DNA of 64,000 nt from Cupriavidus pauculus (GTDB lineage Bacteria; Pseudomonadota; Gammaproteobacteria; Burkholderiales; Burkholderiaceae): the NCBI RefSeq assembly GCF_003854935.1, contig NZ_CP033969.1, positions 310,001 to 374,000 of the forward strand, in the 5' to 3' direction. The translations under genes were made by a program, and so were the position numbers. Under the pieces are notes generated by a model. That model saw only the letters and a list, made by a program, of their open reading frames with translations, was not told the DNA's origin and did not search any database. The stretch's first letter is position 1. The number at the start of each line of letters is the position of its first letter. Below are positions 47,389 through 49,398 of the stretch, piece by piece.

Positions 47389-47817
47389 TTAGATTTCCAG
47401 CACCTTGGGCTGCTGTGCGCCATGCGGATGCTCGCCTTCGGCATAAACCTTCAGCTTCTTGATCATCGCGTAGCCCAGCGGACCCTTCGGCAGCATGCCC
47501 TTAACAGCCTTTTCCAGGGCACGGCCCGGGAAGCGCTGCTGCATCTTGCCAAAAGTGGTTTCGTAGATACCGCCCGGGTAGCCCGAATGGCGGTAGTACT
47601 TCTTGTCCTGTTCCTTGGTACCCGTCACGCGCAGCTTGGCTGCATTGACGATGATGATGAAATCACCGGTGTCGACGTGAGGAGTGAATTCCGGCTTGTG
47701 CTTGCCGCGCAGTCGGCGTGCCACTTCGCTGGCAACACGGCCGAGGACCTTGTCCGTCGCGTCAATCACGTACCAGTCGCGCTTTACCTCTGCAGGCTTG
47801 GCGGAAAAGGTCTTCAT
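47389..47817 (-). CDS. rplM: Large ribosomal subunit protein uL13
   Basis: 50S protein of 142 residues starting [19 protein letters not shown]. The ATG at 47817 has AGGA nearby (TTCAGGAAAAATC). Upstream in-frame codons are leader sequence. It is first in the two-gene rplM-rpsI operon with its own promoter and terminator. Confidence 0.99.
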
Positions 47818-48088: not shown

Positions 48089-48262
48089 CGAAAAAAAACC
48101 CAAGTCGGTTTGGACTTGGGTTTGAATCCACCAAAGGAGGAGGGTGGAGGAGACACCGGGCGATCGACGGGGCCGGTCATGGCGGGCGGTGCGAGGGGCG
48201 ATGGGGTCTGAAACCGGCTTCGCTTTCGCACTCTGGCGCGCTCTCGTGCGCCGTCGTTCGAT
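48089..48262 (-). ncRNA. Candidate small RNA with anti-Shine-Dalgarno hairpin loop
   Basis: A minus-strand transcript of about 170 bases is bounded by a sigma-70-type promoter and a strong terminator, with no plausible gene inside. By eye it forms several hairpins: GGCGC/GCGCC (48235-48239 with 48248-48252), GTGCGA/TCGCAC (48189-48194 with 48226-48231), ACCGG/CCGGT (48155-48159 with 48173-48177), TCCACC/GGTGGA (48127-48132 with 48143-48148) and the terminator. The loop of the fourth hairpin reads CUCCUCCUUU on the RNA strand. It contains CCUCCUUU, identical to the anti-SD end of 16S rRNA. It could therefore pair with ribosome-binding sites of mRNAs. It does not resemble 6S RNA or tRNA. No homology search was possible. 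Confidence 0.6.
48093..48122 (-). terminator. Terminator of the candidate small RNA
   Basis: The stem AACCCAAGTC (48097-48106) pairs with GACTTGGGTT (48113-48122). On the minus strand it is followed by about eight U residues, a strong rho-independent signal with no annotated coding gene upstream of it on that strand. Confidence 0.9.
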
Positions 48263-48269
48263 GGAATGG

Positions 48270-48297
48270 ATTATACATACGGGTCCGGTGGATGCAA
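48270..48297 (-). promoter_or_regulatory. Promoter of the candidate small RNA
   Basis: On the minus strand TTGCAT (48297-48292) and TATAAT (48275-48270) are 16 bases apart, a near-consensus sigma-70 promoter. Initiation would be at about 48262. Two copies of GYGAAATGRC (48311-48320 and 48331-48340), exactly 20 bases apart, lie just upstream. Confidence 0.7.
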
Positions 48298-48397
48298 GAA
48301 AATTTGCAGTGTGAAATGGCATATCATTATGCGAAATGACGAATCCAGCGCAGACGAATACCATAAATCCATATAAATCAAAAACTTAAGTGCAAAC

Positions 48398-48562: not shown

Positions 48563-48985
48563 ATGGAATGCAAAGTGACATGGTCGGGTCCGGAGGGCAT
48601 GAGCTTCATCGCCCAGACCGGCAGCGGGCACCTTGTGGCGATGGATGGCGCTCCGGACGGCGGCGGCAACAACCTGGCGCCGCGCCCGATGGAAATGGTG
48701 CTGCTTGGCACCGGCGGCTGCACGGCCTATGACGTGGTGCTGATCCTCAAGCGCGGGCGGCAGGACATCCGGGGCTGCTCGGTCAAGCTGGAGGCCGAGC
48801 GCGCCGACACCGATCCGAAGGTGTTCACCAGGATCAACTTCCACTTCACGGTGACGGGCAAGAATCTCGATCCGGCCAAGGTGGAACGCGCCATCGAGCT
48901 GTCGCACGAGAAATACTGCTCGGCGTCGATCATGCTGGCCAAGACGGCCGAGATCACGCACACGACGGAGATCGTCGAGGGCTGA
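48563..48985 (+). CDS. OsmC-family peroxiredoxin-like protein
   Basis: A 140-residue member of the OsmC/Ohr superfamily, closest in form to the YhfA type. The two reactive cysteines are C53 (GTGGCTAYD) and C119 (HEKYCSAS). The family includes thiol peroxidases active on organic hydroperoxides, though YhfA-like members are poorly defined. GAGGA about 9 bases before the ATG is the ribosome site. It shares a terminator with rnpB. Confidence 0.9.
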   Translation: MECKVTWSGPEGMSFIAQTGSGHLVAMDGAPDGGGNNLAPRPMEMVLLGTGGCTAYDVVLILKRGRQDIRGCSVKLEAERADTDPKVFTRINFHFTVTGKNLDPAKVERAIELSHEKYCSASIMLAKTAEITHTTEIVEG

Positions 48986-49047: not shown

Positions 49048-49398
49048 GAAGCAAAGACAGGCCGATAAGCCGGATTCTGTGCACACCGCGCACCCTTGCG
49101 GGCTGGCGGCGCGTGACAACCATTCCTCTAGGCCGCCCGTTACCGGACGGCTCCAGCTCCCTACCCGCAGACTCGGCGGGCCGCTTCATCGTCTGCCTAT
49201 TTGGGATTGCTCCAGGTGGAGGTTACCGCGTTTCACCCTTCCCGCCGACCGAAGCCGGCGGCAAGACTCGTCTCTGTGGCCCTATTCCGCACGTTGCCGT
49301 GGATGGCTGTTAGCCAACACCCTGCCCTGTGGAGTCCGGACTTTCCTCCCCTTGCCCCTTGCGAGACAAGCAGCGATTGTCTGGCCTGCTTTGCGGGC
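49048..49398 (-). ncRNA. rnpB: RNase P RNA component (class A)
   Basis: Catalytic RNA that matures tRNA 5' ends. Read on the minus strand it contains the universal core GAGGAAAGTCCGGACTCC, then CAGGGTG, the GAAACGCGGTAACCTCCACC region, AGCAATCCCAAATAGGC, and the 3' part ATCCGGCTTATCGGCCTGTC. The P1 helix is complete: GCAAAG-CAGGCC at the 5' end (near 49394) pairs with GGCCTG-T-CTTTGC at the 3' end (near 49051). Length is about 350 bases, as in E. coli. Ends are placed from P1 and the terminator and may be off by a few bases. Confidence 0.97.

What the first reader, a model, noticed from the sequence alone, without database searches (positions are those of the whole stretch)
48089..48297. Candidate small RNA whose hairpin loop copies the 16S rRNA anti-Shine-Dalgarno end
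An orphan promoter (TTGCAT-16-TATAAT, minus strand) and an orphan strong terminator frame about 170 bases with no plausible gene. Just before the terminator, TCCACC/GGTGGA forms a stem presenting the loop CUCCUCCUUU. CCUCCUUU is the same as the 3' end of 16S rRNA, so the loop could bind ribosome sites on many mRNAs or compete with the ribosome. CU-rich and anti-SD loops are known in some bacterial regulatory RNAs. Whether this one is new I cannot say.
Basis: partly seen in the sequence, partly recalled or inferred. Interest (0 to 1): 0.8.

Follow-up and report, generated by a model that had tools for sequence, protein, structure and literature searches.

The report
Ribosome-site-binding small RNA, probably plastic-store controlled
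The stretch encodes a small regulatory RNA of a known betaproteobacterial family that blocks ribosome sites on selected messages, and comparison of relatives suggests that the family is switched on when the cell fills its PHB (bioplastic) carbon store.

Summary
Window 48091-48155(-) is Rfam RF02278, Betaproteobacteria toxic sRNA (68.4 bits, cut-off 50), and the positional ortholog of Burkholderia ncS27 (osmC / sRNA / rplM; the B. aenigmatica copy is 92 nt, ncS27's published length). Core, -35 TTGC and TATAAT are identical in 30 of 30 Cupriavidus loci read. Besides the loop, a second anti-RBS site before the stem, GUCUCCUC, is kept in 97 of 108 order-wide hits; the loop's CUCCUCC in 44.

Apparently unreported: promoters of this family carry the box of PhaR, the PHB-granule-sensing repressor. 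An exact box lies upstream of 38 of 78 sRNA loci in genomes with phaR and 0 of 30 without. In rplM-linked loci all 25 exact boxes overlap a -35. A weaker, RF02278-like element lies in the 3'UTR of the phasin gene phaP1 in 25 of 29 Cupriavidus loci.

At the window promoter the box has 3 mismatches, so PhaR control of this copy is uncertain; an exact box stands at its paralog C2:1061253 and at its own phaP1. Nothing was tested at the bench.

The parts
48091..48155 (-). RF02278 sRNA core: the predicted processed short form (about 65 nt), two hairpins and U-run
   Evidence: Rfam cmscan 68.4 bits against cut-off 50; own covariance model, built with this sequence among its 24, 69.6 bits
48091..48262 (-). 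predicted primary transcript (about 172 nt), like the long form S17L (190 nt) of Bordetella
   Evidence: TATAAT 48275-48270 in 30 of 30 genus loci read; start placed by analogy with S17L; inferred, not mapped
48156..48262 (-). 5' leader, a structured domain removed on processing (inferred)
   Evidence: consensus fold over 30 Cupriavidus loci; 2 leader pairs with changes on both sides
48146..48155 (-). Site 1, UGUCUCCUCC, anti-RBS contact (its first part single-stranded, its last three letters in stem 1)
   Evidence: GUCUCCUC in 97 of 108 order-wide hits; kept in the four own paralogs
48127..48148 (-). stem-loop 1 with loop CUCCUCCUUU (Site 2)
   Evidence: 98.7% of 239 cells paired over 40 distinct rplM-linked sequences, stem nearly invariant
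48091..48123 (-). intrinsic terminator hairpin and U-run
   Evidence: 2 terminator pairs with compensatory changes in the genus
48270..48297 (-). promoter TTGCAT-16-TATAAT; in relatives a PhaR box overlaps the -35 (3 mismatches here)
   Evidence: TTGC and TATAAT invariant in 30 of 30; exact box in 4 of 30 genus loci and in 25 of 42 rplM-linked named loci
48302..48317 (-). conserved palindrome-like element ATTTCACACTGCAAAT just upstream of the -35; candidate degenerate second operator
   Evidence: aligned block conserved in the genus with a variable centre; loose pattern YGCRNYGCA at 1 mismatch here, at 0 mismatches somewhere in the scanned stretch of 24 of 30 genus loci, no control made
47389..47817 (-). 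rplM (ribosomal protein L13), conserved downstream neighbour
   Evidence: Pfam PF00572; 42 of 80 named rplM loci have the sRNA upstream on the same strand
48563..48985 (+). OsmC-family gene, conserved divergent neighbour
   Evidence: Pfam PF02566; a similar divergent frame, judged by eye, in 8 of 8 named loci listed

Best explanation
It is a trans-acting regulatory sRNA, the Cupriavidus ortholog of ncS27 in Rfam family RF02278. A sigma-70 type promoter makes a precursor of about 172 nt, which RNase E probably trims before GUCUCC to a stable double-hairpin RNA of about 65 nt. With Hfq, its 5' UGUCUCCUCC and its loop pair with purine-rich ribosome-binding sites that match beyond GGAGG, and so lower translation of a set of carbon-uptake and catabolism mRNAs.

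Across the order many promoters of this family are, in genomes that have phaR, probably operated by PhaR. PhaR would sit on a box overlapping the -35 and leave it when PHB granules form; the sRNAs would then slow further carbon uptake while the store fills. In Cupriavidus and two other (unnamed) genera the phasin mRNA itself carries an RF02278-like element in its 3'UTR.

Shown here: family membership, positional orthology, conservation, the box statistics and the 3'UTR element. Taken from published work on relatives: processing, Hfq, target repression. Inferred: that all this acts in this organism, and PhaR occupancy anywhere. For this exact promoter PhaR control is uncertain (about 0.4).
For: Rfam 68.4 bits. 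Order osmC / sRNA / rplM and the 92-nt Burkholderia form (PMC4603805 table). Genus conservation.

Published relatives: ncS27 over-expression slows growth and silencing speeds it; its level is higher in biofilm, stationary phase, starvation and glucose medium (PMC5688073). S17 is processed by RNase E, has lower levels without Hfq and represses BP2158 (PMC11722255).

PhaR: exact TGCRNYGCASMA within 170 nt upstream of 38 of 78 loci (32 of 47 genomes) with phaR against 0 of 30 (0 of 22) without, Fisher 1.7e-7 and 2.4e-8; shuffles give 0.2 of 78. By family 14 of 21 against 0 of 12. In the 42 rplM-linked loci the box density is 68 times higher in those 170 nt (25 of 6,678 positions) than elsewhere (14 of 255,456), and all 25 boxes lie 16-17 bp before a -10 within 2 mismatches of TATAAT.

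Own phaP1 has one exact box and one that fits the looser TGCRNYGCANMA in its promoter, and an RF02278-like element in its 3'UTR.

Targets: GGAGGAGACA within 9 nt of ATG occurs 6 times in this genome, 0 times for the pattern read backwards. The frames are three TctC receptors, one MFS transporter, one AMP-binding/acetyl-CoA-synthetase-like enzyme and one tannase-family protein.
Against: No transcript was measured in this organism. At this locus the PhaR consensus is missed by 3 mismatches, and 23 of 30 genus loci miss it by 2 or more. 23 of 78 sRNA loci in phaR genomes lack a box even at 1 mismatch. With the looser R. eutropha motif at 3 mismatches 8 of 30 loci without phaR also match, 5.0 being expected. 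PhaR-less genomes cluster in few families, so the contrast is partly one of ancestry; no tree was built. For 11 of the 22 PhaR-less genomes the lack is read from their absence among the 102 listed matches, since the list of misses was cut. Of nine phaP1 3'UTR copies given to Rfam seven matched, at 30.7-38.3 bits, below the cut-off of 50, and two not at all. Only six targets were predicted, and the match could partly reflect an RBS style: of 65 listed GGAGGAG sites near ATG 14 continue with AC; in this 64-kb window GGAGACA near ATG occurs 0 times (0.67 by chance).
Confidence: 0.8

Rival explanations
1. A general anti-Shine-Dalgarno competitor or toxin: the loop copies the 16S 3' end and blocks translation broadly.
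For: The family is called toxic because clones inhibit E. coli (stated in PMC4603805 and PMC7011215; the original paper was not held). Over-expressed ncS27 slows growth.
Against: The CUCCUCC loop is not kept in the other copies of this genome. S17S did not impair exponential E. coli growth. Effects are substrate-selective (PMC10987360), and 70 of the genes raised without S17 have matches to its sites.
Confidence: 0.1
2. A cis leader or attenuator of the rplM-rpsI operon, with the hairpin and terminator deciding read-through.
For: Same strand upstream of rplM in 42 of 80 named loci.
Against: The distance to rplM varies from 204 to 994 nt. In Burkholderia aenigmatica an opposite-strand open frame of 102 aa lies between (its being a gene is inferred). 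Own paralogs lie elsewhere. ncS27 is listed as a discrete 92-nt RNA.
Confidence: 0.04
3. The box over the -35 belongs to another regulator with a PhaR-like palindrome, or is an extended -35 without a regulator.
For: In most of this genus the box is degenerate while an upstream palindrome-like element stays conserved. Many promoters of PhaR-less genomes keep TTGC at the -35, and a few even TTGCACAA.
Against: Full boxes occur only where phaR is present; the single one-mismatch case without it is in a genome 85% complete. Boxes of the form TGCRNYGCANMA stand at the phaP1 promoter of all 29 genus loci scored. The published PhaR consensus fits (PMC6201568, PMC12849132).
Confidence: 0.2
4. A small coding gene rather than an sRNA.
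For: S17L holds a possible 32-aa frame; several frames cross the site.
Against: The ATG frame in the leader reads through the terminator (my reading). Conservation is highest in the hairpin block.
Confidence: 0.02

Closest known systems
Rfam RF02278 Betaproteobacteria toxic sRNA; ncS03/ncS05/ncS27/ncS62 of Burkholderia cenocepacia (double-hairpin RNAs)
   Same: Covariance score above cut-off; two hairpins; CU-rich Site 1 and loop; same osmC-rplM position as ncS27 (inferred through Burkholderia aenigmatica).
   Different: The Cupriavidus precursor is predicted at about 172 nt instead of 92; PhaR is not named as regulator in the passages read.
Bordetella pertussis S17 (S17L 190 nt to S17S 67 nt)
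   Same: TTGCAT -35, long precursor, GU/GU processing site (window: GGU/GUCUCC), anti-RBS sites.
   Different: Lies next to coq7, not rplM; its level depends on BvgA in that species. The S17 letters are not printed in the text, so identity was not tested.
Sinorhizobium meliloti MmgR
   Same: An sRNA whose promoter is bound by PhaR/AniA and that tunes PHB (PMC12542648, PMC8401924, PMC9049629; passages).
   Different: Alphaproteobacterial alpha-r8 family; not compared by sequence here.
NmsRb, anti-hemB and ncS16 sRNAs
   Same: Weak Rfam matches at this site, with CU-rich stretches.
   Different: All far below their cut-offs (21.4-25 bits against 48-52).

Membership tests
RF02278 Betaproteobacteria toxic sRNA | covariance score at or above the curated cut-off (50 bits) | tested here: met
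   68.4 bits
RF02278 Betaproteobacteria toxic sRNA | two hairpins, the second an intrinsic terminator | tested here: met
RF02278 Betaproteobacteria toxic sRNA | CU-rich anti-RBS sequence | tested here: met
   Site 1 and loop
RF02278 Betaproteobacteria toxic sRNA | expressed as a discrete short RNA, toxic when cloned in E. coli | not testable with these tools
   published for relatives only
ncS27 ortholog group | position between osmC (divergent) and rplM (downstream, same strand) | tested here: met
   B. cenocepacia J2315 itself was not fetched, Burkholderia aenigmatica served as proxy
Bordetella S17 | 27-nt core said to be 100% conserved in many Betaproteobacteria | not tested
   its letters are not in the text read
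PhaR regulon | box TGCRNYGCASMA at the promoter of this locus | tested here: not met
   best match 3 mismatches in the window; exact in 4 of 30 genus loci
PhaR regulon | box at promoters of the sRNA family in phaR-bearing genomes | tested here: met
   38 of 78 exact, 55 of 78 at up to 1 mismatch, against 0 and 1 of 30 without phaR; 23 of 78 have none
PhaR regulon | PhaR binding and derepression by PHB | not testable with these tools
   needs gel shift and a phaR deletion
RF02278, for the phaP1 3'UTR element | covariance score at or above 50 bits | tested here: not met
   7 of 9 copies given matched at 30.7-38.3 bits, L290 and L291 not at E up to 0.05; called RF02278-like only
L13 or other ribosomal protein leader | Rfam leader match at cut-off | tested here: not met
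   only RNase P and RF02278 reach cut-off in the window

The most novel reading that the evidence does not exclude
The RF02278 anti-RBS sRNAs are the post-transcriptional arm of the PHB-sensing PhaR regulon in Betaproteobacteria. When granules titrate PhaR, operators over the -35 release these sRNAs, and in Cupriavidus and two other genera the phasin mRNA releases a further one from its 3'UTR. Together they shut down carbon-uptake mRNAs while the store fills. The window copy is an ortholog whose operator is decaying while a second palindrome upstream persists.
Probability: 0.65. Interest if true: 0.78.

Novelty: new member of a known kind. Interest (0 to 1): 0.58.

Why it matters
What controls the accumulation of the double-hairpin RNAs was left open ('yet unknown', PMC5688073). 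The S17 authors postulate an unidentified repression of its promoter in one growth mode. A 2021 review says that the role of riboregulation of PHB in Cupriavidus necator 'remains undeciphered' (PMC8401924). A PhaR operator on these promoters and an sRNA-like element in the phaP1 3'UTR would bear on all three with one circuit, in a main model of bioplastic production, and can be tested by a few Northern blots and gel shifts.

Tried and rejected
General anti-SD toxin, rplM attenuator and small peptide: see rivals. The consensus promoter scan missed the promoter; conservation was used instead. Stem-1 covariation among rplM-linked copies is uninformative because four of six pairs never vary. The covariance model built here kept only stem 1 (6 pairs). 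For target specificity, 65 rows GGAGGAG-N3-12-ATG were listed, a few of them double listings of one site (25 for the pattern read backwards); by my count 14 continue with AC, 6 of these with ACA. This is suggestive only. Locus L040 has a Site-1-like start without the rest; the model did not report it and it is not counted. Rows set aside: L288 (phasin start cut off), and Site-1 matches more than 250 nt after the phasin stop in L308 (second match), L328 and L339, judged by eye to lie in the next gene; L232 is cut by a contig end and was scored on a shorter stretch. Kimelman 2012 and the MmgR paper were not held. The ncS27 paper of 2019 was seen only as cited in others. Fig. S3 of PMC5688073, the 'common upstream motif', could not be read (no supplement look-ups), so its authors may have printed the same motif without naming PhaR.

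Full report
Observation. Rfam names the element: RF02278, Betaproteobacteria toxic sRNA, 68.4 bits, cut-off 50. The genome has five places at E up to 0.001, two over the cut-off. The genus is Cupriavidus: genus-mate G108 has a contig of 619,389 bases, as does Cupriavidus gilardii. In the family, 138 of 151 genomes searched have a match and 134 one over the cut-off; none of the 14 control genomes does.

Conservation. Of 61 genus genomes searched, 59 matched the intergenic stretch and the best 30 were held as loci. All 30 contain TGTCTCCTCCACC[C/T]TCCTCCTTTGGTGGATTC; TTGC of the -35 and TATAAT are invariant. Mean identity to the window is 0.996 for 48155-48123, 0.869 for the terminator, 0.761 for 48275-48156 (leader, with the -10), 0.688 for 48303-48276 and 0.582 for the stretch upstream of the promoter. 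The leader folds into a shared domain; 4 of 39 consensus pairs, two of them in the leader, show changes on both sides.

Orthology. A scan with RplM kept the best 80 loci with titles. A model built here finds the sRNA in 42 of the 80, each time upstream on the same strand, with its start 204-994 nt before rplM. Some loci hold little sequence upstream of rplM, so 42 is a lower bound. In Burkholderia aenigmatica the RNA from the -10 plus 7 to the last T is 92 nt, an osmC-like frame is divergent and a 102-aa opposite-strand frame lies before rplM. This matches ncS27 (92 nt, BCAL3348a, ncS27, BCAL3349 as -> <- ->; PMC4603805 table).

Mode of action from relatives. Passages and a section of PMC5688073: double-hairpin RNAs, CU-rich stretches opposite RBSs, 55-80% of predicted interactions near gene starts, slower growth on over-expression of ncS27, higher levels in biofilm, stationary phase, starvation and glucose medium. 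Passages and sections of PMC11722255: S17L to S17S by RNase E, association with Hfq, repression of BP2158. Herbaspirillum has four members (PMC7011215, passages). The window has the same GU/GU junction, GGU/GUCUCC. Across 108 order-wide hits GUCUCCUC is kept in 97; in the loop region CUCCUCC is found in 44 and the shorter CUCC in 96. In this genome the four other copies keep GUCUCCUC but not the CUCCUCC loop. I read Site 1 as the common seed and the loop as the more variable contact. Six frames of the genome start just after a ten-base match to Site 1: three TctC receptors, an MFS transporter, an AMP-binding/acetyl-CoA-synthetase-like enzyme and a tannase-family protein; the pattern read backwards gave none.

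The operator. Reading the named promoters showed CTTGC-N3-GCACAA over the -35 in many. This fits the published PhaR consensus: TGCRNYGCASMA (PMC6201568, abstract and passages) and YTKNTGCRNYGCANMAR (PMC12849132, passages). PF07879 (PhaR) occurs in 102 of 150 order genomes, and RF02278 at E up to 1e-6 in 69 of 150 drawn the same way. All 108 hits were scored over 170 nt upstream. Exact boxes: 38 of 78 in phaR genomes, 0 of 30 in the others; up to 1 mismatch 55 of 78 against 1 of 30, that one in a genome 85% complete; shuffles 0.2 and 5.8 of 78. By family 14 of 21 against 0 of 12, four families standing on both sides (Fisher 1.6e-4). With the looser R. eutropha motif at 3 mismatches the contrast is weaker, 60 of 78 against 8 of 30, with 19.1 and 5.0 expected from shuffles. 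In the 42 rplM-linked loci 25 are exact and 35 within one mismatch. All 25 exact boxes overlap a TTG of a -35 placed 16-17 bp before a -10 within 2 mismatches of TATAAT, and the box density is 68 times that of the rest of the loci.

Against it at this locus. The window promoter misses the box by 3 mismatches. In the genus 4 of 30 are exact, 3 have one mismatch, 23 two or more. A palindrome-like element with a variable centre, just upstream of the -35, is conserved in the genus and may be a second, degenerate operator. The own paralog L002 has an exact box, on the other strand of the palindrome, over its -35.

The phasin link. Own phaP1 (PF09361) has one exact box and one of the looser form TGCRNYGCANMA in its promoter, and the fifth RF02278 place of the genome (37.7 bits) lies 135 nt after its stop. 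Of 60 genus genomes with a phasin match 30 loci were held and 29 scored: TGTCTCCTC in 23, CGTCTCCTC in 2 more, degenerate or absent in 4. Outside the genus 40 of the 54 listed phasin places were read over some 210-420 nt after the stop: genus g24 5 of 5, g10 2 of 4, the other 31 none near the stop. Of nine phaP1 copies given to Rfam seven matched RF02278, at 30.7-38.3 bits, below the cut-off, and two did not match.

Print. Nine searches listed no paper that I could see to link RF02278 to PhaR; word finds gave no PhaR, PHB or phasin in PMC5688073 or PMC11722255. The library lacks most subscription journals and supplements were not available, so this is not proof. The precedent is MmgR, an sRNA promoter bound by PhaR in Sinorhizobium.

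Verdict. The window feature is a member of a known family and most likely works as an anti-RBS sRNA (0.8). The new claim, control of the family by PhaR and a sister element in the phasin mRNA, stands at 0.65 and deserves a bench test.

Noticed in passing
window 49049-49392 (-): RNase P class A RNA gene next to the osmC-like gene (242.1 bits).
   Followed up: no
L005 1501-1574 (G000:C2:3065092-3065165): RF02278-like element in the 3'UTR of phaP1, seen again in 25 of 29 genus loci and in the unnamed genera g24 (5 of 5) and g10 (2 of 4).
   Followed up: yes
L003 1501-1564, L004 1501-1570: Two further own copies (46.0 and 38.2 bits) start shortly after the end of an open frame on the same strand, so they may be 3'UTR-derived sRNAs; the frame before L004 looks like a permease (by eye, not tested).
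   Followed up: partly
L041-L068 upstream of the sRNA; window about 48302-48335: A second palindrome-like element (ATTTCATATTATGAAAT / ATTTCGCAATGCAAAT type) further upstream in Burkholderiaceae promoters, regulator unknown.
   Followed up: no
G203 (L208, L210, L211, L216, L225, L235, L242, L245): One genome has 8 copies at E up to 1e-6, two of them 378 bases apart in tandem.
   Followed up: no
PhaR-less genomes, e.g. L182, L187, L215, L233: Their sRNA promoters share TATTAGATAAT in the -10 region after a TTGC, without a full PhaR box; the same -10 stretch also occurs in a few phaR-bearing genomes (L254, L261, L263).
   Followed up: partly
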